DNA of 64,000 nt, from assembly GCA_021234155.1 (NCBI GenBank), contig JAJEKV010000011.1:11093045-11157044 (forward strand), given 5' to 3'. Positions 1-51,837 of the stretch are shown piece after piece. The notes under the pieces are model-generated. The model worked only from the letters and a program-made list of their open reading frames with translations, was not told the origin of the DNA and did no database searches. The DNA comes from Isoetes taiwanensis. Its lineage: Eukaryota; Streptophyta; Lycopodiopsida; Isoetales; Isoetaceae. A program made the position numbers and the translations under genes. Position 1 is the first letter of the stretch. Every line of letters begins with the position of its first letter.

Positions 1-924
1 CGACCCTTCTTCAAGGTAATGCGACTCCTTTTCAAGTTTCATTTTCAATATACTCTTCTTTAGAGGGCAATCATTTACCATATGGCCAACTTCATCACAA
101 CAATAGCATTTGATATTTTTGTTGGAGTATGAACTCCAATGTTCGCCTCTCCCTCTATTCGTACGGCCTCTTTCATGGCCTCTTCCTCGTTGAGGTTCTC
201 CTCGTTCTCCTCGTTGAGACTGATGAGATTGAGAATCAGTCTTGGCAGTACCTTCTTCTTGGTGTTGGAAATTTCTCCGATTTCCTCGACCCCTACTCCC
301 CCTACTTCTTGATTGTCTGAAATTTCTTCTTGATTGGCTGAAATTAACCTGCTCCGTTTGTTCCAAGATTTGTGATCTCAAAACTTTCTGCTGTAAGGCT
401 GCTGCAAGCTCTTCGAAGCTAGGCTCACTCTCCCGTGCTTGAAAAGCATCAAGGAAGTGCTCATATTCAGGTGCTCCTTGATATATAGCATTTAGGAGCT
501 CGGCCTCTTCGACTTCAACTCCAATAGAAGCCAATTGTGCAGCGATCTCTGTGATCTTCGCAATGAAGTCACTCACATCTTTACATTCTCTTAGCTTTAG
601 ACTGTTAAGCTGATTTCTTAACAGCTGCTTCCTTGTATGATTCTTGGTCTCATAGATTTGCTGAAATCTGCGCCAAGCTTCACTAGCACTTTTCACTCCA
701 AGTATGTGCCTTTGCATGGAATCATCCACTGCAAGTTTGATGAGCAGCAGGGCCTTTTTGTTCAACTCCTCCCATTTGTCATCTTCATTTTGGTCTTCAC
801 CAGCTACTACATCCCAAACTCCAGCAAGATCAAGTGCCAAAGTCATCTTCTCCTTCCAAATAGAGTAGTTCTTACCTTTAAGCAAGAACTTTTCATTCAT
901 GAACACCTTTTCCAGGCTGTCCAT
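1..924 (-). CDS. Copia (Ty1) retrotransposon gag, open at the left window edge
   Basis: Read on the minus strand from an ATG at 924-922, the frame is open without a stop to base 1 (308 codons). The N-terminal part has the plant Copia gag pattern: LKGKNYSIWKEKM near the start, then ALLLIKLAVDDSM and AWRRFQQIYE, then LKLRECKDVSDFIAKITEI. An Arg/Gly/Gln-rich stretch follows, and then a CCHC zinc knuckle (CYCCDEVGHMVNDC) read from about 116 down to 70. Gag packages the element RNA. The open frame, the nearby primer-binding site and the LTR suggest a fairly young insertion whose pol region lies outside the window. It sits just upstream of a NAGLU exon, so it may lie in an intron of that gene. Confidence 0.88.
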   Translation of the reverse strand, partial: MDSLEKVFMNEKFLLKGKNYSIWKEKMTLALDLAGVWDVVAGEDQNEDDKWEELNKKALLLIKLAVDDSMQRHILGVKSASEAWRRFQQIYETKNHTRKQLLRNQLNSLKLRECKDVSDFIAKITEIAAQLASIGVEVEEAELLNAIYQGAPEYEHFLDAFQARESEPSFEELAAALQQKVLRSQILEQTEQVNFSQSRRNFRQSRSRGSRGRGNRRNFQHQEEGTAKTDSQSHQSQRGERGEPQRGRGHERGRTNRGRGEHWSSYSNKNIKCYCCDEVGHMVNDCPLKKSILKMKLEKESHYLEEGS

Positions 925-1229
925 TGTAAAAAAAACACAAGCCTCTTCTAATCAAAGCCACAAATCTGCAAACCCCTACTCTATCTTCAACATGCAAGGC
1001 AATATGCAAGCTGCTGCAAGAAATCTTTCAGATTTTACACTCAAGGGCTGCTTTTAGCTTGGTTACCGCTGCATGCAACTCTCCATAACAGAAGAATGCT
1101 TAAGGATGCTTCTCTCTAGGCTCAAACAGAAGTTAGGGTTAAAATCTGCTCTGTTTTTCACAAGGCAGAAAAACCTTCTCAAAGTACTTCCTCTCCTACA
1201 CAGAATGAAGCTCCCAAGGATGGAACCTC

Positions 1230-18990: not shown

Positions 18991-19089
18991 GGTAGGTATG
19001 ATAAGGCTCTCTTCTCCCACTCAATGTTGACTTTAACATCCTGAACTTGAAAGCACTCAAGCGTTGCCTTTAGAGCAAGCAAAAATGCG

Positions 19090-19746
19090 GTTTCAAACAT
19101 GGCTGAGCATCCATCTGGTGAAAGCACACAATATGTATTTGCGTACAACATGTTTGGTCCAGAGGTAGCGGGTGTGTTAGGAAAAACACTAAGTCAGCAC
19201 CTGGAACTCACAGAGGTATATCTTAGTGATTTGGCCTTGGAACATGATGGCACCATACAGGTTTTGAAGGCTTTGGAGGAGGGAGCACCTAATCCTAAGG
19301 TGCTTGAACATGGAAATAATGAAGTAACAGAGGAGACAGTTCCTTATCTAGTCAGCTGCCTTTCTAAAAAGCCTTAATTGGAGAAGCTGAACTTGGCAGA
19401 AAATGAATTAAGAGATTCAGGTGCTGTTCTGGTTTGTGACGTCATTGTAGACAGCCATGAGAATTTGCGGGAGCTTGATCTGAGTGCAAACCTTCTCATT
19501 CAAATTGGCTTTTGCTGAACAGTGCATGCAGTAACAAACAAGAGAAACTTTACACTTTTGAATTTGGATTCAAACTGCATTTCTCAGCAACGTCTAGAGC
19601 TGGTTTATAAAAAGCTTCGTAGTGGCTGCAAGGGCATCTCTGTACTTGGCCCCTTAGAAGATGATGAAGTTGAGGATTTGGAAGCAAGCGAAGGTGATGT
19701 TGAAGGAAGTTCCATGGAGGAAAAACTAGGTGGTTTGTCTGTCTGA
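19090..19746 (+). pseudogene. RanGAP (Ran GTPase-activating protein) C-terminal pseudogene
   Basis: One continuous frame with in-frame stops at 19375-19377 (TAA) and 19516-19518 (TGA) encodes leucine-rich repeats: NMFGPEVAGVLGKTLSQ, LTEVYLSDLALEHDG, LEKLNLAENELRDSGAVLV, LRELDLSANLL, then FTLLNLDSNCIS. An acidic tail (LEDDEVEDLEASEGDVEGSS) ending in EEKLGGLSV follows. LRRs followed by an acidic tail are the hallmark of plant RanGAP, which stimulates Ran GTP hydrolysis at the nuclear envelope and cell plate. The WPP and first LRRs are missing. The reading frame has been kept while two stops arose, so it lost function recently or decayed by substitution. Plant RanGAP genes can be intronless, so a processed origin is not proven. 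Confidence 0.85.
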
Positions 19747-32907: not shown

Positions 32908-35900
32908 ATGGCTGCAGATTCAGCAGGCAGAGAAAAAGATCTACGTGCACTACTAGCACAGCTTGGCATAGAAAACCGTGTGCAAACACAATTGACAAGA
33001 GATGCTCGAGGTTCGCTTGAAGTGTTTGATCCAAGCAGAAAAACAATCAAGACAATTGCTGGCCCTTCATCTGTGCGTTTCGAAGAAAAATCAGAGAATC
33101 AAGATGAAGGAAACGTGGAATTACGAAAAAAAGAATTGGAAGACGATGAAAAGAATAGAAATCCTTCTAAAATTGAGAAAAAAATAGGGGCAGCAAAGGA
33201 AGTGGAAGCAGCGGCAAAAAGAGCTGCAGAATGGGGATTAATTTTGAAAGCAGATGCAGGTTTAACCACCATAACGGGCGTAGAAGCACGGCGTTCTAGA
33301 GAAGATAAGCCAAATAATGCCCTAGGAGCTTCAAGAACTTCTGGCGATTCGGATACTGGAAATGAAGTAGATGATTACAAGCGTATACCTCGATTATCCA
33401 AAGAACTGAAAGACGTCCTCTCTTCGTTTGAGCAAACGTTTGTCGTTGCAGATGCACTTGATCCAAACCATCCCGTTCTTTATGCAAGCGCGGGCTTCTT
33501 CACCATGACGGGCTATACTCCAAACCAAGTAATTGGAAAAAACTGGTTCGTTCTTGTCTAAACAAACTATTTCTTTTAATAGTGGCATGTAGCTACTTTA
33601 AAAAGACATGTGTTGCATTTGCAGAAGCAGTTGTAAATTTGCATCTCGGACTGATGAGTCTGCATGACTTTTTTTTCCCAAAGTTCAAGTCAAGAAGGCA
33701 TGTTGCATCAAAACTGATGAAAGTGCATGTGGAAGTATATTCAGTGTGGTCATGCTTATATTTACCATTCTGCTTGCATTTCTTTACAGCCGGTTTCTTC
33801 AGGGAGCCGATACAGACCCGGTTGAAGTTGCAAAGATCCGAGCTGCATTGAATGCAGGAGAACCTTTTTGTGGACGATTGCTTAACTACAAGAAGAATGG
33901 AACCGCATTCTGGAATCTTCTTACGGTGGCACCAATTAAAGACGAATCTGGAAAACTTTTAAAGTTCATTGGGTACGTGTTATGTCCATGAAGGCATTGG
34001 GGAGTATTGCATGCTTTTATGGAAGGATGAAGAGTGAAAGGTTTATTATCGTCTTCAGGAGTCTGCTTGTATCTATGAGACTAGAATGATCTATTTCCCA
34101 CATAAACACACTGTCCCATCTACCAGTTACTTAAGATGTTCATTTCTTTCATGTTTCAACGATGCAGTATGCTGGTTGAAGTAAGCAAATACACTGAAGG
34201 AGGGAAGGATAGAGCATTGCGTCCAAATGGTCTTTCAGAATCTCTTATCAAATATGATGGTAAACAGTTGAAAAAGAAAAGAGAATGTTTACTGACAGAT
34301 ATTCAAATCAAACTCATAAAAGGCCATGGAAATTACAAATGTGAATTACAGCACGGCAGAAGGACAAAGTAACTAGTTCACTTTCAGAACTATTGGATGA
34401 TGTTCAGGGCCTTTTTTCAACTAAGAAATCAAGAACAGGTATTTCTTAAGATTTTTGTGGAGGTTATAAGTTCTAAATTCCTACATTGTTTTCGGGGGAA
34501 ATGTCACCAAAGATTACAAGAGTGGGCTTAAGGAGATCTCTGAAGCTGCTCCTATTGTGAAAGAAGAGATGAAACGTGGTCGAAGACGTTCAGGTTTCTT
34601 CTCATTGTTTGGGTAATTGTAATTTCATTTTCCCTGCTAGAAGGCATTTATATCTGGCATTTTGATGCAATTAGATTAATTATTGATTGCTTTGTATTGG
34701 CAAGGAAGCCAAGCACCACCAAGTTTCCTGGTTTGGAAACACTTGATGAAGCTGATCATATGGAGCGTGTAAAGGAAGTGAGGAAAGGCATAGACTTAGC
34801 AACCACACTTGAACGTATTGAGAAGAATTTTGTAATTACAGATCCAAGGTTACCAGATAATCCTATAGTGAGTTCTATCTTCTCATCTTAGTGCTTTGTG
34901 CTTTCTGCATATGGCTGTATACGAAAGAAAGATTATATTAACATCTGGGGAAGATTGCTTGTGTGTATGAGACCAATTATTACATCAGTTCCTGAACAGC
35001 TAGGGGTTCATTGTGACCACCTAGAATTTACCCACCAAAAAAAAAAAGCACGTTAGAACTTTTAAGTAATTTTTGTCTTTTTCTTAGATGCTGGTCCAAG
35101 AATGATGGGTTTTGTTCTCTCCCTTAAATGACCGTTTATGCGTTTTTTTGCTGCCTGCTTTTTCTTTCTAGAGACTTCCAAGAGCGAGATTATAGACAAC
35201 AAGAAACAAAGAAAGGAAGAAAGAAGAAAAAAGAAAGAAAGAATTTAAATAACATCTGCTGCAGATCCATAGGGTTTTGAGGCCGCATACGTACAAAGTT
35301 TGGACCTGCTAGGAGATGATCCTCCTCAATGTAACTATGACAAAGGATAAAAAATCTTCAGCCTTGCAGGGATGGTCCCATTGATCACCCTAAAATAAGT
35401 CCTTATGTTAGCACTTGGTCCCCTTGTTTCCTATTAGACTTCCCCTTCAGCAATGACGACTTGTGTTTTTGCATTATTGATTATTTTATTCTTGTAAAAA
35501 CTGCTAATGTTTCTCCCTTGGGCTCAAAAGACTTCTTTTTCTCAGTGAGTCCTTGCTTATACCATCTCTTTGTCAGCACGGATGGTCTTTTAACAGTGAA
35601 GAAAGTTATCTCTGGTTGTCTTGGACCTTTTGTCCTCATCAGTTCTCCGTTTTTTTCTTTTTTTGGAATACGCTCCTTTGTTGTTTGGAGAGTTCATGAC
35701 TAATAGAGCCATGTATTTCTGCTTGATCTTCTGCAAGGTTGTTAGATCTGTAAAGAGGCAGGTTTATCTTCCAAAGTTGCACAATCAAATCAAGATCATG
35801 GGACGCTTTTTGTTCGCAATTAATATGCCTAGCCTCTCCATGGTGGGAAGGCACTCTAAATTGTCCTATTGAAAACCTCGCACTATTGGGCAGTCAACAT

Positions 35901-38900
35901 GTAAGTAGCCAGGTCTCACAATAAAGCCATGAGCAAAGCATTTGTCCAAATTCAATCTTCTTTCCGTGGGCAGCTTCGTGCGGCAGAGCTTAGCCAAGTG
36001 TTTGAGACATAAAGCTGCTCGAAGTGATGCAGAATAGATCTTGATCTGGGATATAGGAAGTTTAAAATCAATCTGATCATGATAAAATTGCTACCTGTAA
36101 CCTGACCATCTTGATTTTTCCCACTTTGGCAACTTCAGCATCTCTTCTTGTGTTAATGGTTCAATCTTCATCCATGAACAAGCGTGGGAATATTTGTAAA
36201 CCCCTCCTTCCTTTAAGACCCTGCAATGTTGCTGCTAATCGATAATTAGGGCCAGGCTGCCACATCCATTGTTTAATGCCAGAATCTGTAAATGCCACAA
36301 TCTTGAATATCCAAATTATTTTGGACGAATACTTTTGAAGGGCCTAGTTGATCTATACTTAGATTTGATAAGTGTTCATGTTTTTCCAATGTCCTTTGTT
36401 TTTCACGTTTTTTTTCTTGAGATGAGGGTGGCAGAGATAGTGGTTTTCACATCATCGACTTGTTCTGCTGGCTTTAACCACTTCCACCCACCATCTGTTG
36501 GTTTCTCCTTGTTTCTCCTTCACAACTGTCTTAATTTTTTGCAATTTGAGCTGGCTAATTTTGACATTGATATTCTTTTTCTCCTGTTTTGATATTTTTT
36601 CTCTTGAGATTTGCTCTATTTCTAGTCATGATATTCTTATAAATCATGGAAAGCAAGTGGTTATAGTCAGATTTTGAGATACGTTGCTGATGAATGGCCA
36701 AGCAAATTGAAATAGAATCTGTAGGTGTCCACGACTTCATCAGATCTGAGCAGCTCATTATGTTCTTTTGTGTGACAGCTAAAAACATTTTCCTTTTTGT
36801 TGATCTCCATAGAATTTTAAGTTCTCTCAGTTCTGGCAATTTACATGCATTTTTGCAGATATTTGCATCAGATTCTTTTTTGGAACTGACTGAGTATACA
36901 CGTGAAGAGATCCTGGGGAGAAATTGTCGGTAAGCATAACCCATGTCCCGATTTCTATATCTTTGGAAAGAGAAATATATACTTGAAGGTCCCTTGATCC
37001 TGGAATAGTGGAAACTTTGTATAAAAGAAAAAATTCCGTTAGTCCTAGGAGACCCCTTGTTCCTATAAAACTTTAGAGTGTAGTTATAGGTAATCTAACA
37101 CTTCAAATTTGCTTCCTCTCTTGGTAAACGACTAGCCTGAAACCTCCTGGAGCACCCAATACTTTGTAAGTATTGAAGCTTCTCGTTGTGTACGCTTAAA
37201 GTTTCAGTAGATCATGCTAAAGGTATTCTTGAACCAATTGTCGCAACTTTGGCCAAAATCTGCCAAAATATGCATGCATGGAAAACTACCAATTTGATCG
37301 TGCCCCTTAAAGGCCGGAGTACCTGTATTCTGACCAATCCAATATCTTTACTAACTGAATAAGTGCAGAGGTTATTAGTGCTCGACAGTGCTCTACGGAT
37401 TACTGAACTTGGTGCTTGCTCGCTGATTTAGTACAGTTGTTGCCACGGCTATAAGGTATACTGTGCTGTTGCTGCAACTACAATTGCAATTTCTTCACCT
37501 TCAAACTTGCTATAGAGGCTAGGATCTGCAGCAGAAAAGAACATACCCTTGATATTTGAGTTACGTTCGAGCACCTTCATCTTTGTTTTAGCCAACAATG
37601 ACTGAGCTTGGAATCTCTTAGCTTATGCTTTTCTCTTTAAATCCCTGTGGTTGAACCATGTACACCCTATTCTGTTGAACATTTAGAGAAGCAGATTTGG
37701 CATCTATTCCGTGCACTTTAACCCCTGTTAACCCACCAAAGCAAGGAGAGATGGTGTCCAAAGACAACAAGAACTGCTATAGATTCGATCTAATGCATGG
37801 CCTCAAGGACATTTGTCAAATGACTCTTGAAATGTGAGGTCCTCAAGGGCATTTGTCTTAAGTTCAAAGAAGAGTGGCCTGCGGTCAGCAGGAAGCTCAG
37901 GCTGGATGGGAAAAAAGCTCATCAAGGCATGAGCCTGATAGAAATCCACATGATTTTGGTGTATATATGTGAGAATCAGCTGGCTGAGATCTTCACTAAA
38001 CCTCTTCAAATGCATGCCACATATATATCTTAAGATTTGAACCTGTGAAGATCAAGAAGCTCAAACACACAGGGCAAGAAAATGATTAAAAGAAAGAGTC
38101 GACTACATGTTTTACAGGACGAGAATGTCCATAACAACCTTGTAACAAGTCCTAAAGTCTATCCGAACGGATCCACTAGTTACACAATGCATGCATGTGC
38201 AGGCAGATGCATAACATAAATCTGGTTTTTAACATCATTCTGCAAATGGCAGGTTTCTACAGGGACCTGGCACAGATGCTGAAACTGTGCAAGAGATACG
38301 TGATGCGATAAGAGAGCAGAAGAACATAACAGTGCAAATTTTAAATTATACAAAAAGTGGCAAGTTTTCGTCATCATACTTTTGTACTACTGTTATGAAT
38401 TTCTGTTAAAAGCATATAGCCCAAGTAGAATGAGCTGTATAAACCCATGCAACGTACCGTGCTAAGTTATCTCCTACAACCGGTCAAATAGTTGAGAACG
38501 GAGGGATATGCTAGTTTTTAAAGCTTTGAGATTGCTCAGCTCCTTTGGCTTTCAAATTGATTATCTCCCACCAGTTCTATGGGGTCTTTATTTCTTCTCT
38601 TAAATTATCTATTTATTTAGGTTGGTCCACACATATCTCATTTTCACATTTCATGTTTCAGGAAAGCCATTCTGGAACATATTTCATCTGCAGGCTATGC
38701 GAGATAGTAAGGTATATAAAATTGTTCTTCTTACATCTGAATTAAACAGTGCCTAGAATTTGCTGGTCAACCTATGCTCTCAAAGTGGTAGGAAGGCTGC
38801 GACTCTTGCAAGGTTGCAGCACTACTACTATTATTACATGCACTGTAGACTACCCTATCACTAGTGCATGCATTGAAAGCATACTTCGTGTAAATTCCCA

Positions 38901-41900
38901 CTTCTTTTCTCAAATCGAATTAACATTGTGATTTTATACTTCGTAGTGTTTTTTTCTGTGGGGACTATATGTGCTCGAACTAATAGTAAACTTAAAGCCC
39001 TGCCAGTTGATTGTGTTCCTCCGATGATCATAATATTGTTAGGTTATATTTTTCCTTCTAGTTTTAATTCTAACTCTAATGCTAACTTTTACGATCTATT
39101 TTGCAGGGAGAGCTGCAATACTTCATTGGTGTTCAACTGGATGGAAGTGCACATTTTGATCCGAATCGAAAACAAATTCCAAATCAAGTAGTGAACCAAA
39201 ATGCCCCATTGGTAAAAACTTGGAGCTTCACTCACATTTTTTGTTTTTCTCCTTGGATTTGAAGTTTATGTTGTCCACCTTGGAAAGAGTTCATTTTTTC
39301 TGCCTTCAATATAGCATGCAAAATTAATTTCAGTCTTCAGGTACAATCTACAGCAGTAAATGTTAATGAAGCATTGAAGGAGCTTCCAGATGCAAATATG
39401 GTTAGTATCTTCTTGGACTAATTCACTTCGTTGTAAAAGGTTGTTCCTTTACCATTTATATTCTGTCAAAGGAGTCATCTAAGAGTAGGACCTTAAGCTA
39501 ACGCCCAATTATATCCAAGCTTTACATTCACATGAGAATGCCTAATAGGGCCAGAGGATCCGAACCATAAGGCCAGCTAATGACAATGCTGCGTGCAATT
39601 ATGTGTGGGATCCTAAGAGCCATAAGTCTGAACTTGGATAACCAACAAGACCAAAAAAATCTTGAGATGAGTATACATGCAGATTTTATAACTGACAAAA
39701 CGTGGTTGGAAAAAGCATCATCTACTTTTCCTTTTCAAAGAATATAGGACAAGGGTGTTACATCTATCAGGTTTACATTACTACTAGTTGTTGATGCAGA
39801 GGCCTAATGATCTTTGGTTCCAATATTCAAAATCTGTAGTCCCCAAGCCTCACAAGCTACATTCGCCTTCCTGGAAGGCAATTGCTAAGGTAACTAAACT
39901 GCTAAATTTTATCTTCAATACGAAATAGTTTACAACTGTAACCGCGTAATGCTAATGCCATGTATATCTGTTATTACTGCGTTGTCTTGATAAGAAACTT
40001 CTTTTATATATGTCTTATGGAAGGTAATTTACGTACAAACATAAAGTGTCTTGATAATAAACTCGTCTTTTTTTTTTTCTTAAAAGATGATATTTAAATA
40101 TATGTTTAAATTCCTTGAACCCATTTATTTTTATGCATATCAGTTGAATATTTTAAACATTATGTTGTCCCTTAGGGATGTGATGGAAAAAATCATAATG
40201 GGAAACGATTTCGACATATCAAGCCTCTTGGTTCTGGTGATACTGGAATGTAAGTACTATAGATTGGACATGTCCAGTTGGTTAGAATGTAGGAACAGGG
40301 AGCTATAGCTTGCTAGTTCTTAAGGACCTAGAATTGTTTATTGGTATCTACTAGTCCCATTGGCCAATCTGGTCTTGGGGGCAATAAAATTCATAAAGCA
40401 TTTTTGTGATTACAATGGTGAAAGAACAATGTAGAAATTTAAATTCTCTACCACATGTCAAGACGTGGAATAGAACCTTGGAGCAGTTGGGATCACTAAG
40501 GATCAGCCCTTTTTGTTAGGTTGGTTGGTATTATGGGTTAAAATGTAAGAGAGGTTTGAGAAAGTACAATTAATAGTTAGGAGTTCTTGTTTCACATATG
40601 CAAAATTATCTTAAGTTGCCTTCTTTGCGCAATTACCTAACCATTGTAACCTTTGTTAAATCTCTAGTGTGCACTTGGTGGAACTTGATGGGGCAGGTGA
40701 AATGTTTGCTTTAAAAGCCATGAAGAAGGAATTGCTTTTGCAGCGTAACAAGGTCAATTTTGATATTTCTGATATATGTTTTGATTGTGTATAGAAATGT
40801 GGGTTCATATTTACTTCTATAGGGCGTACAATATCTTTCATTCAAACGTGAAGGTATTGATTGATTGGAAAGTTACAATTAAAATTGGATGACCAGTATA
40901 AGAGGACCAGGGCCTCCTTCTTCCCATTCATAAGATTAACAGTCCAAGCACAAGCAAAAGTCCCAAGTACTCCCAGATACAGCAGGTCAAAGAGTTACAA
41001 ATGACACAAGCTACTCAAATATTAATATTAAGACACGACAACAAGGTACAATCATTGTTCAAGTGATAAAACAATTTATAAGATCAGTGTCTTCTCTCAG
41101 GAGTTGCGAGTAATAAAACCCTTCATAAGATGAGCAGAATTTGTGTCCAATCTTTAACACACATTAGGTGCTATGGTTTGAAAAGGTTGGGATACTAGCA
41201 TGCGCCTGAGATCAAGTAACTCAACGTCACAGTGCTTGGAGTTACTTGAGTTGGATTTGAGCTTGGTATGGGCCTGAGTGCATTTGCCTTGGCTACAAAG
41301 GGTCTTTGAAGCTCATCCTGAATCCTCATCTTCTAAAAGGATTCACCTAATTGCCAATTATGTAGAGTTCCCCTCGCATTCACTCTCTCATCAACAACAA
41401 TGTGAAACTGGGTTCTGGTTCAATATGCTCTGCAAGTTGAATTCTAGAATGTTTTCGATATACACATTGGCGCACTAAGACCAGCCATGGGCCAAACTGC
41501 AACAGGTGAAATAGCACAAATTCTGGAAAAGCCAAGAGTAACCAGCCATATTACTCATTCTGATACACAAGTTTCTCCCTTTATGTCTATGTCAAATGCC
41601 TTTACAAGATGTTTCAATGCTAATGAATCTCATAACAGGTACATCGTGCATGTGCTGAAAGGGAGATATTAAACATGATGGACCATCCTTTTTTACCGAC
41701 ACTGTATGCCACTTTCCAGGTATTCTTCGTTAAAGTACAGTAGGGGCTGGGCTTGTCGAGTCAGCAAGCGTTATTTTTGGTTTTGAATGGTTGTACAGAT
41801 ATAGGAGCTGCTTGTTGTTGCTTCATCTATTGTGCATCATTTCTCGTTTATCTATGATATAAGATCATAGAACTAAAACAGATTACTTTCTGGTTTAGAC

Positions 41901-44900
41901 AACAGATCATATTTGTCTTATCACTGATTATTGTTCTGGAGGAGAGCTTTTTCATCTACTAGACAAGCAACCATCTAAAGTCTTTCAAGAAAAAGCAGCT
42001 CGGTATGTCTATTAATTATAGAACATTCTTAATAAAGTAGGCCCAAATGCTATCTTTCCTCATTAGTTTGGATATTTCCTTCAATTGGGAAGATGTAGAG
42101 TGGGCTGTTGCAGAGTTAGAAACAACCTTCTATGGCTAACAATTAGATATCCTTTTGTCTAGACTTTGTTCTTCTTTTTTGAAATTCGAAAAGGCACAGC
42201 TATATCTATTACTGGTATCAAATAACATTTTCAACTACAGATTTTACGCAGCTGAGGTAATGATTGCTCTGGAATATCTACATTACATGGGTAATGTACT
42301 CTTCCATGTCTACTCGTCTATGTGTCACAGATTTTTAGAATACTCTGATATGAAATTCTTAACCACACTTGTTACTGTAAGCCCCGAAACCCAAAGGCTC
42401 ATATTAAAAGTTTGCACATTAACGGGAGGCTTAGACTGGTGGTGAAGATAATATATGCCAACCTGCAAATTAAATGTGTAACATCGTCCATCAGCATTGT
42501 CCCAGAAGAGAGTTTGTTCAAATTTGCCAGGAAGAGAGATTTGTCTTTGCAAAGGGCAGTTGGTTGAACTGTGTTCGACGAACTGAAGGAGGGACCCAGA
42601 ATTTTTGCATGTTGACAGTTTGTCTCTATGAGAATTTGATGTATTCGTTAAGACACGATCTTACTCATGATAAGTCTTCTCCAAAGGATTCTGACTCAGC
42701 AACCATTATATTCTAATTTTCAACGAATGTCGTAGAAACTATTACATGAAAGATAGGAGCTGTGTGACGAGAGCTAAAAAAACTTGTTGACACAAATTCA
42801 ACAGCATTATCGTTGGTAAAAAATGTCTTTGATGCGAATTCGAGAAGCAGTTGAATGCTTTTGATGAGTTTTAAGATTAGTCGATTTATTTGGAACAATC
42901 AGTCCACATATTGAGATAATAGAGGCGAAAATCAGGTCGAGAAAGAAATGCTGCAGCTCCCTGTGCATTTTGAACTCATATGAATGTTGCAGTTGATAGT
43001 TCTTTACTTATCTTTTTCTTAGTGGTTATCTAAGTAATCTTAAACCTTATCATGAGAAAATACATCCTTAGTTGTGTCATTGGCACATAATGAAGAAAGA
43101 TAAAAAGGTGCCTCCACTTTTTATAATAGTTTTGGTTTAAGTTCTCGATCAAGTATTTGTTCAGAATAATAGACGCATTAACTGGTATTCACTGTCCAGG
43201 TGTTGTTTACAGAGACTTGAAACCTGAAAACATTCTTATTCAAAGTGATGGTCATGTGCAACTGACCGACTTTGATTTATCATTGTTAGCTCCTCCAAAT
43301 CCCCAAGTATGCCCTTTCTGCGACTCTTTTTTCCCTTTAAAAGCAATAACTATATTCAATGAGCAATGACAAAATACTGTTTTGAAGTCTTTTATAACAT
43401 AACATTAGTGCAAATAATGCAGTAAATAGCCAAGATTGAGAAAAGAATAACTTAAAATATATTACATGGACACGAAAGTTGTTATGATACACAATAGGTG
43501 GGGTTAGGATATTTTGTTTGCGCTCATCAATTTACTTTTTGTCTGTTAGGATGGAAATACTTCTGGAAAGTTGCATATAGTACTTTAAATGGGTTGATGA
43601 ATAAATTGTTTATGAAATGGATAATGGAAATTACACCTTACGCTGCCTTTAATCATTATCGAAGGATTTCCTTTACTGGGCCATTATAGCATGTTATTAC
43701 TAGCCAAGGAAATTATTAAGAATTTCATTCTGATATTATAATTAGCCTGATGATTTTGGAGCGAGTCCTGACTCTCTCTATAGACAGGACGTGAGTGTAT
43801 GAGCGGATGGCTCCTGCATAGGATCACTATTACTTACATTAATGTGTTGCATGTTTTCACTTTGTATCTATGCTCGAGCAATTTTTTGTGCAAGTTCAAA
43901 ATATAACAGCATTTTACTCGCCATCCTTTCCTTTTCCAAAGAAGTGATAATTGCAAAACAATAACAAGTTTCAAGGTTTATTTCCCCGAAAATGTTTATT
44001 GTTCTATTTTGTATTGTCTTCTGTACTTTTGTTTGTTGTTTACTCTTCTAGTTGTATCTACATAATAATCGTCTTTCTAATTCTTGTCCTAGGTAGTGCA
44101 CAGAAAGCCGAATGAGATAGGAAAGCATGCTACAATTCCAGCACCAACATTCTTTGCTGAACCCGTTGCAAGATCAAACTCATTTGTTGGTACAGAGGAG
44201 TACATTGCACCGGTAAGCTAGTTAGCAAATGATTTATTCTTTAGCACATTATCATTAGTCTACACGTACAAGTCTACATCGGTTAAAACAATGAACATCA
44301 TGCAGGAAGTGATAAGTGGATTGGGTCATAGTAGTGCGGTGGATTGGTGGGCATTAGGTACGTTACTGTTCAATTGTTGCAAAATGTTTTTTGTAATAAT
44401 GTCTCGCAATGAAATCTGTTCCCGTGCAATGGATTCAAATTAAATTGAAAGAAGCCAATCCAAACCGTTCGTTCATTCCTATCTACCAAAGAACTTGTCA
44501 TGTATCAGGGGCATAAAATCTTCTCCAATGCATGCATTCCTTTGCAAACTAGGGTTTTTATCTACACACAAATGCCTCGTTCATTCATTCAGCCTATAGT
44601 GGACAATTTAAGAATTGCATCAGCAAGGAAGCTATAGAGAGGTATCTTCTTATATTATAAGGTTTTAGTGTGTGTGGTTATAGAGGTATCTTCTTATAGT
44701 ATAAAGTTATAGTGTATGCGTAGGTGTCTTCAACCAAAATTTCATCTTGATCGTTGCTTCATTGTCAACCCAAGAATGTGAAATAAGATTGTAAATGCTT
44801 TAATTCATGGCCGAGATCCACTCGCTAAAATCCCACGGTCAAACGGGGAAAGGGAAAATGGAAAGGGCAGCATAAAAAGAGAGGGAAGAAAAAAAAAGGA

Positions 44901-47900
44901 GGGGAAAGGAAGGGGAAGAGGAAGAGGGAAAAAGTAGAAAATAGAAAAGGGAGGGAAAATAGGAAAATGGAAAAAAAGGGTAAAATGAAAAGAGGAGGGA
45001 GGAAAAATAGGAGGGGAAAATAAAGAATGAGAGGAATAAGAAAATGGAAAAAAGCAAACATGAATAAAAAAAAGGAAAAAGGAGAATAAACTAGGGAAAG
45101 GCAAAAAGGAAAGGGAAATAAGTTAAATGCATAGTTCAAAAGAATCTATCTTACATACGATTATCTTAGGGATCTAAGTATCTAAAAAATCTAACATTTT
45201 TTAAGATACTTTAGATATGTCACATAAATTTATAAATTAAAAATTCATAGCATTTAGAGCCAATAATAGATAATGACAAAATGTATTAGACAATTTGATA
45301 ACAAAGCAAGACATTTCCGAGCTTCCATATCTAAGTGCAGTGATAAGAAAAACCTTGAGGCTACATGTGGCAATTCCACTGCTACTGCCACACATGAACT
45401 TGCATCAGGCAAAACTAGCAGGCCATGACATTCCAGCAGAGAGCAAAATTTTAGTGAATGCAAAGTGGGACAGCTAAGAAGTGTTCAATCCTAACAGGTT
45501 CATGGATGGAAAAATTAGAGCAGGTGGAAATTGTAACGTTCCTAACCGACATGCCCTTAACCAACTGGGCAAAACTGCTTAGACATTTATGAGTAGTCGC
45601 TTCTATCCATTTATGCTAGTGTCTAGGGAACGCGACATCTAGATCTACTCGAGCGGCCTCCACGGGTCTGTTACACTAGAACCATGGTGTCCAAGACCAA
45701 GTCATGACCTACCGTTCAACGATATTACGGGTCATACTTGCCCCATGGAGAGTCGAACTCGAGCCATGCTTCGATACTAAATATACCGTTCCTAATCGAC
45801 ATGCCCTTAACCAACTGGGCAAAACCGTCTAGACGTTAATGAGTAGTGGCTTCTACCCATTTATGCTGGTGTCTTGGGGACGCGACACCCAGATCTACTC
45901 GAGCGGCCTCCATGGGTGCATTACGTAAATGATTTTAGGTTTTTGCCATTTGGAGTTGGAAGAAAAAGCTGTCGCTTTCCCAATCCTTTCTCTTGTTGTT
46001 GCCAGATTGGACTCAACCTTTGAGCTCCTGCGACAGACTAACAACAAAACTAACAGCAGACCATAATATTGCTTATCTTACTTCATTAGATCATCTTATT
46101 CCTCTTGGAGCAGTAATTTCGGCAGCATCTTTTTACAAACTAGCTAGTTTTTGTCCCACTGCCAACGAGCAGCCAAAGTGGAGGACATGTATAGGCTTTT
46201 AAGTTCTACCACGTCGGGGATCATCATCGTATACCCCTAGTAACCAACTTCCAAATATAAGTGACATTGTCAAGGTTTGAACCCATGACCAAATGAACAC
46301 TTATTTTTGGCATTACTAGGCCTATACCAACTCACCACACATCCGTTGGGCAAAACTTTGGCCATACATGCAAAGTGGGACAGCTAAGAAGTTCAATCCT
46401 AACAGGTTCATTGATGGAAAAATTAGAGCAGGTGGAAATTGTAACGTTCCTAACCGACATGCCCTTAACCAACTGGGCAAAACTGCTTAGACATTTATGA
46501 GTAGTCGCTTCTATCCATTTATGCTAGTGTCTAGGGAACGCGACATCTAGATCTACTCGAGCGGCCTCCACGGGTCTGTTACAATCTCTCCCACTAGAAC
46601 CATGGTGTCCAAGACCAAGTCATGACCTACCGTTCAACGATATTACGGGTCATACTTGCCCCATGGAGAGTCGAACTCGAGCCATGCTTTGATACTAAAT
46701 ATACCGTTCCTAATCGACATGCCTTAACCAACTGGGCAAAACCGTCTAGACGTTAATGAGTAGTGGCTTCTACCCATTTATGCTGGTGTCTTGGGGACGC
46801 GACACCCAGATCTACTCGAGCGGCCTCCATGGGTCTGTTACAGAAATGATTTTAGGTTTTTGCCATTTGGAGTTGGAAGAAAAAGCTGTCGCTTTCCCAA
46901 TCCTTTCTCTTGTTGTTGCCAGATTGGACTCAACCTTTGAGCTCCTGCGACAGACTAACAACAAAACTAACAGCAGACCATAATATTGCTTATCTTACTT
47001 CATTAGATCATCTTATTCCTCTTGGAGTTTCGGCAGCATCTTTTGCAATTTTAGGCAAGTTTGAAGCAGGACAAGGGTATTTGAGATCTGGCTGAATGTC
47101 GTGCTTCCCTATTTTGCTATGTATTTCCTTCCATGATGTTCAAACAAAACAAGGCAGCAATATCGAATCCTTCAGAGTGATTAAAAGCACAAAAATGAAG
47201 AGATTCGATCAATTCGAGTGCAGATTTGAGTGCCGCAGAGATGGCCACAAAGTCACGGAAGGGGAAAGGCACGAAAGGGGGAAAACCAATGTTTTTTTTT
47301 TTTTTTTTAAGTGCACGTATTTAACCAAAAAATACATCAAATATGGTACAACACGAATGTTTGGTAACCAGGTGTTAGATACGCGTATCTAACCATCTAT
47401 GGTCAAATGCATACAAAACCTTTATATCTAGCAATGTTGGGTATGGTTTGCTAGGAAAGAGGGTCGAATATAAACGACTTATAGCCTAGCAATGTTGGGC
47501 TTGGTTTCTAGTTATGTATATTTTATTTGAAAAAAGTTGATGCATAATTTCCCTCGCCAAATCGATCTATCTTTAAATACAAAGGATAATATAAATACTT
47601 TATTGTGGATCAAATATAAATACTTTATTGTGGATCAAGATGGAATAATTACGATGAAACCTATTTTTTCACCCATTTCATTCAATCAATGGTTTAAATT
47701 GAGACAATAGTTGTGTTGATCCACTATTGGCAAATTTATCTTTTTTATGATGGTGCACAATTTGGCCATGGTCCACTATTGGCCCCCTAATTTCTTCTTA
47801 ATATAAAAATGTGATTCAACAATCTCAGTTTCTTTTACTAAATGTTTTCAGGTATTCTTTTATATGAAATGTTGTATGGTCACACTCCATTTCGCGGAAA

Positions 47901-48720
47901 GAATAGACAGCGAATCTTTTCCAACATATTACATAAATCAATCGCTTTTTCGAACCATGTACCGGTAATTAAAGTTTTTCATTATTAAGTTGCTTTTAAC
48001 ATTGATATGAAAGTATATGACATTGATCTTGCTAGGTCGGCCATCTTAATCATATTCCGTGGGTGATTAATTTTGTTTTTGTTGCTACAATAATGTGGAT
48101 CTTTGGTCTTGTAGTTAAGATAACATTTGTGAAAGCCAACTCTTTTTTATCTTATTTCTTGTCTAATCAACTCGAAAAAGATTAATGGCTGAATGGTTGA
48201 GCTTTCCTACAACCTCCCAGACATTTCCTTTATGAGAGAGAGAGAGGGAATAAGCTATAGTTTTTGAACCGCTTAATTCTCACTCAGATGGTATTGCAGG
48301 TAAGTGTTGCTGCAAAAGAATTGATGCATGAGCTACTCCAGAAAGATCCTTCTAAAAGACTCGGATCACAGAATGGTGCCTACGACATTAAACAACATTC
48401 CTTTTTCAAAGGAATTAACTGGCCTTTACTTCGTAACACGGTCTTAACTCTCTCCCAATTTTTGATGACCTCTCATTCTTGTATATGCTATTAAATTGGT
48501 TTTCTATTCCCAGTGATTTATTATTTACCACTATCTTTAACAATTATGTTATCTTGTTGAACAAAGTTGATATGGGCTTGACAAACTATATGTTTTCTAG
48601 GTGCCTCCTAAGCTAGTGGTACCGCATAAAGAGATGGTGCATAAAATTGATGGCATGACTCAAGATGCACGATGGGTTGATGCTGAAAAGGACATATTTG
48701 GATCATCAGGGTTGTTCTAA
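32908..48720 (+). CDS. PHOT: Phototropin (LOV1-LOV2-AGC kinase blue-light receptor), 23 coding exons, 930 aa
   Basis: Blue-light receptor kinase of the plasma membrane controlling phototropism, chloroplast movement and stomata. Start ATG 32908 in a good context (AACAATGGCT); an upstream in-frame GTG is not used. Coding exons: 32908-33545, 33790-33972, 34168-34259, 34352-34438, 34513-34612, 34705-34867, 36859-36929, 38253-38359, 38662-38711, 39107-39211, 39341-39400, 39800-39889, 40176-40249, 40668-40752, 41639-41719, 41899-42002, 42241-42290, 43200-43306, 44093-44212, 44306-44357, 47852-47964, 48300-48440, 48601-48720. They sum to 2793 nt and every junction keeps phase. The exon 5 acceptor is the least certain (AG at 34470 is also open). 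Domain order: acidic/basic N-terminus, RAAEWGLIL motif, LOV1 (about 173-280), hinge with RRRS, LOV2 (about 405-512), J-alpha ([14 protein letters not shown]), kinase (about 594-886). Length is normal for the family. No lesion is seen; the oddity is Leu276 in LOV1. Confidence 0.95.
33421..34190 (+). other. LOV1 domain of the phototropin (exons 1-3)
   Basis: The domain runs from [20 protein letters not shown] through GKNCRFLQG to [11 protein letters not shown] and [15 protein letters not shown]. The adduct-forming cysteine is residue 213; its codon is split TG|C by intron 1 (donor 33546, acceptor ending 33789). The FMN-contacting Asn and Gln of NCRFLQ, the Asn of NYKK and the Asn of FWN are kept. 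The glutamine of the family motif FIGMQVEV, which hydrogen-bonds flavin N5/O4, is CTG (Leu276) at 34172-34174. LOV1 is thought to support dimerisation and modulate sensitivity rather than drive kinase activation. Confidence 0.93.
34868..36858 (+). other. Phototropin intron 6 (2.0 kb)
   Basis: It contains an A/G-rich stretch (35170-35250, runs of GAAAGAAAGAA type). A minus-strand coding-like piece at 35990-35870 ([20 protein letters not shown]) is vaguely like the zinc-binding region of LINE reverse transcriptases but is not assignable. Confidence 0.45.
37830..38045 (+). pseudogene. Copia RNase H C-terminal relic inside phototropin intron 7
   Basis: [20 protein letters not shown] followed by [12 protein letters not shown] is the C-terminal signature of Ty1-Copia pol (family form ...ENQLADIFTKPL). 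A stop follows soon after, as in the end of pol. No LTRs were recognised, so it is a fragment. Confidence 0.82.
38360..38661 (+). other. GC-AG intron in the phototropin gene (intron 8)
   Basis: To keep NYTKSG-KPFWN in frame the donor must be AGTG|GCAAGT at 38359/38360, paired with TTTCAG at 38661. GCAAGT is the usual extended consensus of the minor GC-AG class. All other introns of the gene are GT-AG. Confidence 0.85.
44840..45121 (+). repeat. Homopurine tract of about 280 bp
   Basis: The plus strand is almost entirely A and G (for example GGGAAAGGGAAAATGGAAAG and AGGAGGGAGGAAAAATAGGA), with a few scattered pyrimidines. Phe/Leu/Pro/Ser-rich minus-strand open frames here are artefacts of this composition. 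It lies in phototropin intron 20. Long purine-pyrimidine mirror tracts can form triplex DNA. Confidence 0.92.
45290..46060 (+). pseudogene. Cinnamate 4-hydroxylase (CYP73) fragment, copy 1, split by a TRIM element
   Basis: [20 protein letters not shown], then [20 protein letters not shown] and ILVNA, match the ExxR/PERF region of CYP73, the cytochrome P450 that 4-hydroxylates cinnamic acid in the phenylpropanoid pathway (the usual ETLR Glu is Lys here). A deletion then joins to [14 protein letters not shown], and after the TRIM insertion to [15 protein letters not shown] (haem-binding loop; the usual CPG is CRF). A stop at 45476-45478 and the deletion show it is dead. It lies in phototropin intron 20, same strand. 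Confidence 0.87.
45532..45925 (-). mobile_element. TRIM retrotransposon, copy 1
   Basis: Two about 144-bp direct repeats (45532-45675 and 45782-45925) with TGTAAC...GTTACA-type ends flank about 106 bp of non-coding DNA. On the minus strand the internal region starts with a tRNA-Met-type primer-binding site and ends in a purine tract. This copy has lost part of the purine tract (CTCTCCC missing after 45675), and its right end has mutated (TTACG). Confidence 0.85.
46200..46368 (-). mobile_element. tRNA-derived SINE-like segment
   Basis: On the minus strand a tRNA D-arm/A-box-like sequence (TGGTGAGTTGGTATAGG, near 46348-46332) is followed about 45 bp later by a B-box-like sequence (GGGTTCAAACC near 46285-46274), with a non-coding body to about 46200. 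This resembles the heads of plant SINEs. It lies between the two CYP73-TRIM copies. Confidence 0.55.
46373..47042 (+). pseudogene. CYP73 fragment plus TRIM, copy 2 (tandem duplicate)
   Basis: The block from TGCAAAGTGGGACAGCTAAG at about 45462 to the CGGCAGCATCTTTT region at about 46132 is repeated here with an offset of about 908 bp. It again encodes [13 protein letters not shown] | TRIM | [14 protein letters not shown], then in a shifted frame [17 protein letters not shown], a CYP73-like continuation. Neither copy is functional. Confidence 0.88.
46440..46842 (-). mobile_element. TRIM retrotransposon, copy 2 (best preserved)
   Basis: LTRs at 46440-46583 and 46700-46842 start/end TGTAAC/GTTACA. 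The target duplication GAAAT is intact at 46435-46439 and 46843-46847, and removing the element restores an uninterrupted CYP73 frame ([11 protein letters not shown]). On the minus strand the internal part begins with TAGTATCAAAGCATGG (primer-binding site like TGGTATCAGAGC) and ends with a purine tract AGTGGGAGAGAT next to the 3' LTR. No coding capacity. Total 403 bp. Confidence 0.93.
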
Positions 48721-50640: not shown

Positions 50641-51434
50641 CACATTTCATGCTTTCCCTGCAGTGTACAGCCAAGCTCACATTGTCATGTGCAATTATTG
50701 CATCTAGATTTCTAAGTGAGGCTTGGTCAGAAAGATGGGCTTACCTATGTCAAAATGATTTGGCTATGGAAAGCCAAATGAAAGATTTGGCTATGGAAAG
50801 ATTTGGCTATGTGCAAGCTCTGGAAAGCAGATGCTCTGATGCATGTTAAGCTGGCACACTATCAGCAGCAAGTCAATCCTAGGCTCACGAGAGGCCCACA
50901 CCAGTACTTGTACACCCAGTTGCCCATGAAGAAGCGCAGACTTATAGCTTCCATTCGCACGGGTGCACATCGCCTCTGCATTGAGACAGGGCGTTGGGCT
51001 CGGGAAGCACGAGAGCAAAGGCTTTGTCAGTGTTGCCACCAGGGCGCCATTGAGGATGAATGTCATGCCCTCCAGATCTGCCCAGCGTTTGCCCATATCC
51101 GAGAGCGGTATGTTCGATTACTAGTGCCTGGCCAACCGTTGCATGGGTTACTGAATACAGCGTCAGTGGGTTTGTTGGGGTCATACCTCCAGGAGGTTAT
51201 GGATGCATTCAGTTGTGTCCTCCGGGACAGTATTGAACTGTCTTATACAATTGTACAGTATGCCAGCATACTTATTACTGCTAAGGTTTTTCCCTCGAAA
51301 ACCCTTCGGGGCGGGGGTTTTTTAATCCTGTCAGTAATACGCTTGCTGCTCTCTTTTTGTTTGGGTCTCATAGGCCAGTCGGTCTCCGTGGACGCTAAAA
51401 AATCTATTCTATTCTATTCTATTCTATTCTATTC
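50640..51434 (+). pseudogene. LINE 3' end with Cys/His motif and (ATTCT)n tail
   Basis: A 217-codon frame starting near 50803 contains KKRRLIASIRTGAHRLCIET, then GRWAREAREQRLCQCCHQGA and IEDECHALQICPAF. This is the C-X2-C...H...C module found at the C-terminus of some LINE reverse transcriptases. The upstream part (50700-50800) has a duplicated GATTTGGCTATGGAAAG and is broken. The segment ends in six ATTCT units (51405-51434), a simple-repeat tail as seen on some non-LTR elements. No RT core is present, so it is 5'-truncated. Confidence 0.75.
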
Positions 51435-51837
51435 CACATCTCGGCCCATTGATTAAAACACAATTGCTACGAATCTGTCCCTTATAATACATGGGTAATG
51501 CTTTGGATATACCTCTTGCCCTTATATTACTGAGCAAGGAATATTTACTTAGCTTTACTAGATTTTCTATAGCTCTTTCACCTGGACCACTCCCTCGTGC
51601 TTGTACATAACACTTTGAAGCGACCAATGTTTTGCATCCAAGTTCTCAACAATGAACAGAAGACAAGAAAAAACTTGAAAGGAGAATAAAGACAGAAGAA
51701 AGAGAAATGAAGACAGAAGGAGAAGGAAATGGGAGAAGGAGAAGAGAATGGAAGCTAGAAGAAAGAAAACATAAGATAAAAAATAGAAGAGAAAAGGGTC
51801 AGAACTCATGAGTCAACCGAGAGAATAGAATAGAAAA

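What the first reader, a model, noticed from the sequence alone, without database searches (positions are those of the whole stretch)
34168..34180. Natural Gln-to-Leu substitution at the LOV1 flavin-sensing position of an otherwise intact phototropin
Exon 3 reads GGT ATG CTG GTT GAA where the family has FIGMQVEV (CAG). The replaced residue (Leu276) is the glutamine whose side-chain flip reports flavin reduction. Engineered Gln-to-Leu changes at the equivalent place in LOV domains are known to blue-shift absorption and weaken signal output. LOV2 keeps its glutamine (Gln507). LOV1 here may form the adduct but signal poorly, a possible natural separation of LOV1 and LOV2 roles. A single-base sequencing error (CTG for CAG) must be excluded.
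Basis: partly seen in the sequence, partly recalled or inferred. Interest (0 to 1): 0.8.

Follow-up and report, generated by a model that had tools for sequence, protein, structure and literature searches.

The report
Phototropin LOV1 glutamine switched to leucine
In this plant's blue-light receptor the sensing glutamine of the first light-sensing domain is naturally a leucine; the change is real and inherited, and plants seem to have flipped this one position between the same two amino acids many times while the matching position in the second domain stayed the same.

Summary
Window 34172-34174 reads CTG (Leu276) in a 23-exon, 930-codon phototropin gene (32908-48720, +) with both adduct cysteines, Gln507 in LOV2 and an intact kinase. 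Sequencing error is very unlikely: a second copy on another contig of the same genome also has CTG, and the two copies differ by 15 silent but only 7 amino-acid-changing codons (dN/dS 0.13). The genome matches Isoetes taiwanensis by assembly size. It also holds an older phototropin paralogue with the normal Gln. The window's protein groups with three Selaginella phototropins that also have Leu (89/93, not starred); the Gln paralogue groups with Selaginella Gln phototropins (97/96). The change probably predates the Isoetes-Selaginella split.

The wider pattern is the main result. Among 279 homologues LOV1 is Gln in 244, Leu in 35, nothing else; LOV2 is Gln in 278 (one gap). The tree needs 22 Gln/Leu changes, 13 if only the best-supported branches count. 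I read LOV1-Leu as a working, slower, blue-shifted LOV domain (as shown by others for engineered LOV domains), with LOV2 left as the kinase switch. That effect is untested here; neutral drift between two tolerated residues is the main rival.

The parts
34172..34174 (+). CTG codon, Leu276, at the place of the N5-proximal glutamine of LOV1
   Evidence: read directly and by gene model; aligned to Gln of solved LOV1 domains
34168..34259 (+). exon 3 of the phototropin gene (end of LOV1)
   Evidence: gene model, acceptor gatgcag, donor gtaaac
33790..33972 (+). exon 2, LOV1 core (RFLQG ... KFIG)
32908..33545 (+). exon 1, N-terminal part and start of LOV1; Cys213 codon is split between exons 1 and 2
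   Evidence: start codon chosen by me, not confirmed by transcripts
34352..34867 (+). exons 4-6 (34352-34438, 34513-34612, 34705-34867): LOV1-LOV2 linker and start of LOV2
36859..39211 (+). exons 7-10 (36859-36929, 38253-38359, 38662-38711, 39107-39211): LOV2 with Cys444 and Gln507; intron 8 has a GC donor
39341..48720 (+). exons 11-23: linker after LOV2 and the kinase domain up to the stop codon
   Evidence: Pkinase E 2.7e-63, residues 596-880
32908..48720 (+). whole phototropin gene, 23 exons, 930 codons and stop
   Evidence: a second copy with the same exon lengths found

Best explanation
The gene encodes a functional phototropin whose LOV1 is a natural glutamine-deficient (Leu) photosensor, while LOV2 keeps the canonical Cys/Gln machinery that controls the kinase. 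After an old duplication in the Isoetes/Selaginella lineage one paralogue changed Gln to Leu in LOV1 and kept it; the other stayed Gln. LOV1-Leu most likely still binds FMN and forms the cysteinyl adduct, absorbs a little further to the blue, reverts more slowly and passes on a weaker, water-relayed signal. LOV1's job is to modulate sensitivity and assembly of the receptor rather than to switch the kinase, and that job tolerates or exploits the change. The same Gln/Leu exchange arose many times in plant phototropins. SHOWN: sequence, intact gene, second copy, Gln paralogue, Leu in three Selaginella proteins, two-state recurrence in LOV1, invariance in LOV2. INFERRED: photochemistry, functional consequence, and that selection favours Leu in some lineages.
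For: Intact 23-exon model with both cysteines and Gln507. Second copy with CTG; 22 codons differ, dN 0.0032, dS 0.0244. Old paralogue in the same genome reads ATG CAG GTT (Gln) with LOV1 Cys kept. Tree: Gln paralogue + Selaginella Gln 97/96; window + Selaginella Leu 89/93; window + Selaginella Gln p-AU 0.035; phots of this genome held together p-AU 0.036. Site 276: Q 244, L 35, nothing else, of 279; site 507: Q 278, one gap. On 227 dereplicated rows, column 276 left out of the tree: 22 changes, 13 if only branches with support of at least 0.99 are kept; 200 label shuffles gave 27-34, mean 32.2. LOV1 pocket positions stay conserved in the 36 Leu rows, e.g. Cys213 in 35 of 36. No LOV1-specific speed-up: Leu-only to Gln-only changes 140:108 in LOV1, 342:293 in kinase, p 0.49 for a difference. 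Engineered Gln-to-Leu LOV domains keep signalling, blue-shift and recover slowly (PMC9098866 passages). [quoted passage not shown]
Against: No photochemistry, expression or phenotype data for this protein. The grouping with the Selaginella Leu proteins is not starred (89/93, 93/93) and was absent when a desmid was the outgroup; window + Takakia (a moss) was not rejected (p-AU 0.138). The protein is divergent (end branch about 0.6), with 26 sites off the 95% consensus of the set, half of them after residue 590. Searches used Leu-bearing queries, so the share of Leu is inflated; alone gives 9 of 120. Five of 279 homologues have lost the LOV1 Cys to Ser, which favours weak constraint on LOV1 photochemistry. 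Leu rows tend to change slightly more than their Gln partners in the kinase too (21 pairs against 7), so Leu rows may be somewhat faster genes overall.
Confidence: 0.6

Rival explanations
1. Neutral drift within narrow limits: the LOV1 glutamine does little in phototropins, Leu is the only hydrophobic residue one base away from a Gln codon and fits the pocket, so Gln and Leu come and go without effect.
For: LOV2 alone suffices for the kinase and phot1 LOV1 has a tenfold lower quantum efficiency than LOV2 (PMC8086140 section 4). LOV1 Cys itself is Ser in 5 of 279 homologues. Close relatives differ: almond P0236 Leu and Prunus brigantina P0215 Gln; two Hevea proteins 91% identical.
Against: Drift should also give His, Arg, Lys, Glu or Pro, which are equally one base from Gln codons; none is seen in 279. 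Leu is kept in Isoetes and in three Selaginella proteins, probably by common descent. The LOV1 pocket is conserved and LOV1 does not speed up relative to the kinase.
Confidence: 0.3
2. Splicing fidelity: the Gln codon CAG lies 5-7 bases inside exon 3 and makes an extra AG acceptor next to the real one; CTG removes it, and LOV1 tolerates the amino-acid change.
For: In this genome the Gln paralogue has AG at that spot of exon 3 and both Leu copies lack it. By direct reading, the LOV2 Gln codon (CAA) lies further from its acceptor, about 25 bases into exon 10.
Against: CAA would cure the acceptor without changing the protein; no coding DNA of the other species was available to test it.
Confidence: 0.06
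3. LOV1 has become a dead light sensor in this gene and serves only as a structural or dimerisation domain.
For: Models in which LOV1 acts by contact rather than photochemistry exist (PMC8086140 section 4). Other phototropins have lost the LOV1 Cys.
Against: Here Cys213 and the checked flavin-pocket residues are intact, and engineered Leu variants form the adduct.
Confidence: 0.08
4. Sequencing or assembly error, or a pseudogene.
For: A single-base difference in one assembly is always suspect; no reads were seen.
Against: Second copy with the same CTG and independent differences; Leu in Selaginella and angiosperm proteins from separate sources; intact frame, dN/dS 0.13; the Isoetes taiwanensis assembly was polished with Illumina reads (PMC8566536 passages).
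Confidence: 0.01

Closest known systems
Plant phototropins (phot1/phot2)
   Same: LOV1-LOV2-kinase layout, both adduct cysteines, LOV2 Gln, kinase motifs; the 120 phototropin-like proteins listed match at 50-68% identity over 55-97% of the query
   Different: Leu instead of Gln at the LOV1 N5-proximal site, shared with 35 of 279 homologues examined
Natural glutamine-deficient LOV receptors (LOV-delta-Q), Dietler et al. 2022, PMC9098866
   Same: LOV domain with the conserved residues of that paper's filter but Leu for Gln; the paper reports about 350 such proteins, predominantly Leu and Ile (section 9)
   Different: Here the delta-Q domain is one of two LOV domains in a plant kinase beside an intact LOV2, and the family shows only Gln or Leu. 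Whether their list (Suppl. Data 3) holds plant LOV1 domains could not be read here.
Engineered AsLOV2 Q513L
   Same: Same substitution at the equivalent position; adduct formed, blue-shifted, about 22-fold slower recovery (PMC9098866 passages)
   Different: Engineered, in LOV2, isolated domain
Selaginella Leu-type phototropin (S. moellendorffii phototropin-1A, P0005)
   Same: Leu at the same site; groups with the window's protein in the trees
   Different: 68% identical over the tree columns; orthology not starred

Membership tests
Phototropin | tandem LOV1 and LOV2 domains, each with GXNCRFLQ and the adduct Cys | tested here: met
   GKNCRFLQG (Cys213) and GRNCRFLQG (Cys444)
Phototropin | C-terminal Ser/Thr kinase of the plant AGC type with DFD | tested here: met
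   Pkinase E 2.7e-63; DFD and RDLKPEN read in the model; the AGC/DFD label is recalled
Phototropin | N5-proximal glutamine in LOV2 | tested here: met
   Gln507; 278 of 279 homologues have Gln, the other is a gap
Phototropin | N5-proximal glutamine in LOV1 (usual, not defining) | tested here: not met
   Leu276; 35 of 279 homologues share this
Phototropin | blue-light-stimulated kinase activity | not testable with these tools
   needs protein
LOV-delta-Q receptor | at least 8 of 9 listed conserved LOV residues present, glutamine absent (filter of PMC9098866, section 22) | tested here: met
   G, N, C, R, F, L, Q of GKNCRFLQ plus Asn245 and Asn255 read in the window; Leu276. Positions matched to YtvA by motif and spacing, not by an alignment to YtvA
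LOV-delta-Q receptor | adduct formation and a light response without Gln | not testable with these tools
   needs spectroscopy
Neochrome (phytochrome-phototropin chimera) | N-terminal phytochrome photosensory domains | tested here: inconclusive
   Pfam finds only PAS/LOV and kinase domains in the 930-aa model, but exons further upstream were not sought systematically

The most novel reading that the evidence does not exclude
In land-plant phototropins the LOV1 active-site glutamine is a natural two-state tuning switch. Evolution has moved it between Gln and Leu at least 13-22 times in the sampled set and to nothing else, while the same residue in LOV2 is frozen. Leu sets LOV1 to a slower, blue-shifted, weaker mode that changes receptor sensitivity without touching the kinase switch.
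Probability: 0.4. Interest if true: 0.78.

Novelty: new variant of a known kind. Interest (0 to 1): 0.62.

Why it matters
What LOV1 does in phototropins is named as an open question in the review PMC8086140 (passages). A recurrent, LOV1-only Gln/Leu exchange supplies many natural experiments: two Hevea proteins 91% identical with opposite states, almond P0236 against Prunus brigantina P0215 with no other LOV1 change scored on either side, and the two paralogues of this genome. Swapping one residue in LOV1 and reading sensitivity would test LOV1's role directly. [quoted passage not shown]

Tried and rejected
Alternative splicing as the source of Leu: introns 2 and 3 are only 195 and 92 bases (exon borders), I saw no second exon 3 when reading them, and an acceptor shift cannot give a substitution without a length change. 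Rejected for this window.

Placement: a first FastTree put the window with the Selaginella Leu proteins (0.998); the careful tree with Desmidium as outgroup did not; without Desmidium they joined at 93/93; FastTree put Desmidium, Selaginella Leu and the window together (0.986), which I read as possible long-branch attraction. I rely, which adds the Gln paralogue, and state its support as not starred.

LOV1 decay after loss of Gln: tested on 29 of the 34 Leu rows of the dereplicated tree, each with a Gln relative and an outgroup; the other five (window, three Selaginella, desmid) gave no pair. Pairs share some outgroups, and some outgroups are Leu, so they are not independent. LOV1 shows a slight excess in Leu rows (140:108, p 0.049; 15 pairs against 9), but so does the kinase (342:293, p 0.057; 21 pairs against 7) and LOV2 weakly (42:36; 13 against 10), so no LOV1-specific effect.

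PHOT1 against PHOT2: 28 of 143 Leu in the clade that holds Arabidopsis and Amborella PHOT1, 0 of 21 in the clade around Amborella, Persea and Magnolia PHOT2 (Fisher p 0.026). The sampling favoured PHOT1 and the rows are related, so I do not claim it.

Pfam on seven other open frames of the window gave one hit-bearing frame, a copia gag at 1-951 minus. Paper searches for a report of the LOV1 Gln/Leu alternation showed none in their listings; most subscription papers are not in that library and Suppl. Data 3 of PMC9098866 could not be opened. Of the papers cited I saw: PMC9098866 sections 9, 12, 22 and passages; PMC4532919 abstract, section 10 and passages; PMC8086140 section 4 and passages; PMC6589663, PMC12951445 and PMC8566536 passages. 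PMC13167847 (abstract only) reports a three-residue deletion in Arabidopsis PHOT2 LOV1 that weakens chloroplast avoidance; it was not used in the argument. Structure prediction was not run.

Full report
WHAT IS THERE. A hand-built gene model joins 23 exons between 32908 and 48720 (+) into 930 codons and a stop. All 22 introns end in AG; 21 donors are GT and one (intron 8) is GC. Pfam finds two PAS/LOV stretches and a kinase (E 2.7e-63). Exon 3 (34168-34259) opens T ATG CTG GTT GAA, so residue 276 is Leu, coded by CTG at 34172-34174. LOV2 has Gln507. The LOV1 cysteine (213) is split between exons 1 and 2. phmmer against PDB sequences sets this Leu opposite the Gln of FIGMQVEV in the solved LOV1 domains 2z6c and 2z6d.

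NOT AN ERROR, NOT A DEAD GENE. The window lies in a genome of 1,658,258,908 bases in 1110 contigs. The Isoetes taiwanensis assembly is reported as 1658.30 Mb in 204 scaffolds and 909 unscaffolded contigs (passages of PMC8566536), so that species is a strong inference, not a stated fact. The same genome holds a second copy on contig C1093 with an intact 930-codon frame and the same CTG. The copies differ at 22 codons, 15 silent and 7 amino-acid-changing; dN is 0.0032 and dS 0.0244, ratio 0.13, which is what purifying selection leaves. A third, older paralogue on C1052 reads ATG CAG GTT, that is Gln, and keeps the LOV1 cysteine and LOV2 Gln (its last exon is uncertain). Li et al. 2015 reported only one phototropin homologue for Isoetales, pending more data (PMC4532919 section 10), so two lineages here are an addition.

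DESCENT. In a careful maximum-likelihood tree of 29 proteins with site 276 left out, the Gln paralogue groups with three Selaginella Gln phototropins (97/96), and the window's gene with three Selaginella phototropins that all carry Leu (89/93, below the starred threshold). Holding the window's gene with the Selaginella Gln genes, or with its own genome's Gln paralogue, is disfavoured (p-AU 0.035 and 0.036). The simplest reading is a duplication before Isoetes and Selaginella split, with one Gln-to-Leu change kept in one paralogue. Against full confidence: the window's branch is long, with a desmid as outgroup the Leu rows did not join, and the window with the moss Takakia was not rejected (p-AU 0.138).

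THE WIDER PATTERN. Three protein searches (each listing its best 120) gave 280 different proteins; one (P0001, repeated domains, LOV1 Gln) was dropped. Of 279, LOV1 is Gln in 244 and Leu in 35 and nothing else, while LOV2 is Gln in 278 with one gap. Searches used queries with Leu and so inflate the share; alone gives 9 Leu of 120. By the names in the listings Leu occurs in Selaginella, many eudicots (among them Populus, Hevea, Vigna, Lupinus, Prunus dulcis, Fagus, Protea), one monocot (Phycella) and a desmid (Desmidium). On 227 dereplicated rows, column 276 excluded from the tree, parsimony needs 22 changes at 276 and none at 507. Keeping only branches with support of at least 0.90, 0.95 or 0.99 leaves 20, 18 or 13. 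Shuffled labels need 27-34, mean 32.2, so the state is partly inherited rather than scattered noise. Of 731 scored columns 115 hold exactly two residues. Of the 20 of these that change most (listed) nearly all are like-for-like exchanges (E/D, I/V, F/Y and similar); Q/L ranks third and is, by my reading, the least conservative of them. The count is a parsimony minimum on a FastTree topology and cannot tell gain from reversal.

IS LOV1-LEU STILL A LOV DOMAIN? In the 36 Leu rows (window included) ten checked LOV1 pocket positions stay close to the family. Cys213 is kept in 35 of 36, the desmid having Pro. Asn212, Arg214, Gln217, Asn245, Asn255, Leu257 and Gly274 are kept in all 36; Arg230 is Lys in 3, and Phe272 is Tyr in 5, as it is in 31 of 244 Gln rows (which residues count as pocket is recalled). 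Comparing 29 Leu rows with a Gln relative and an outgroup, changes on the Leu side against the Gln side were 140:108 in LOV1, 42:36 in LOV2 and 342:293 in the kinase. Leu rows are thus slightly faster throughout, with no LOV1-specific excess (p 0.49). LOV1 does not visibly decay after losing Gln.

HOW IT PROBABLY WORKS. In engineered AsLOV2 Q513L the adduct forms, the spectrum shifts to the blue, recovery is about 22-fold slower and the light-driven CD change has half the amplitude; the authors propose that water relays the signal (sections and passages of PMC9098866). [quoted passage not shown] Slower phototropin photocycles, made by LOV2 mutations, raised chloroplast-accumulation responses but reduced phototropism (passages of PMC6589663). 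I therefore infer that Leu276 makes LOV1 a slow, blue-shifted, weaker partner that tunes the receptor while LOV2 stays the switch. None of this was measured on this protein.

RIVALS. The main rival is drift: Gln unneeded in LOV1 and Leu the one hydrophobic one-step neighbour. Loss of the LOV1 cysteine to Ser in 5 of 279 homologues speaks for weak constraint. Strict two-state behaviour, retention in Isoetes and Selaginella and an unaltered pocket speak against it. A smaller possibility is that CAG, 5-7 bases inside exon 3, makes a competing splice acceptor that CTG removes.

NOVELTY. Natural LOV domains without the glutamine are known (about 350, predominantly Leu and Ile, PMC9098866 section 9). 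I found no report of a recurrent LOV1-only Gln/Leu alternation in plant phototropins in the listings of searches of the open-licence PMC library; the protein list of PMC9098866 could not be opened. I file the gene as a phototropin with a glutamine-deficient LOV1: a new variant of a known kind.

Noticed in passing
homologues P0085, P0117, P0120, P0202, P0272: Five of 279 phototropin homologues (among them Hamamelis, Davidia and Synsepalum) have Ser instead of the adduct Cys in LOV1 (GRNSRFLQG), all five with LOV1 Gln kept: LOV1 adduct chemistry seems lost there.
   Followed up: partly
P0145 (Desmidium aptogonum): LOV1 has both Leu for Gln and Pro for the adduct Cys (GKNPRFLQG).
   Followed up: partly
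L009, L010 (G000:C1052): A second, Gln-type phototropin lineage in this genome, in which window exons 4 and 5 were modelled as one exon; Isoetales had been reported with one phototropin.
   Followed up: yes
L002, L012, L013 (G000:C1093): Near-identical copy of the window's gene on another contig (93-98% over the six longest aligned stretches); the Isoetes genome paper mentions low-Ks pairs on separate scaffolds as possible recent segmental duplications. A second haplotype is not excluded.
   Followed up: partly
L004-L008: Further loci encode other LOV proteins (GHNCRFLQGPDTD or similar; a second LOV-like stretch in L004, L005, L007 and L008), perhaps a small expanded family.
   Followed up: no
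window 45458-46133 and 46368-47044: Direct repeat of about 680 bases, 96% identical, inside intron 20 of the phototropin gene.
   Followed up: partly
window 38360-38661: Intron 8 has a GC donor in both Leu copies, while the Gln paralogue uses GT there.
   Followed up: partly
window 1-951 (-): Copia-type gag polyprotein fragment with a zinc knuckle.
   Followed up: no
window 50782-51453 (+): Open frame that looks to me like the end of a LINE-type element, with a (TTCTA)n-like tail; no Pfam hit.
   Followed up: no
window 19051-19374 (+): Open frame that resembles part of a plant RanGAP (from memory); no Pfam hit.
   Followed up: no
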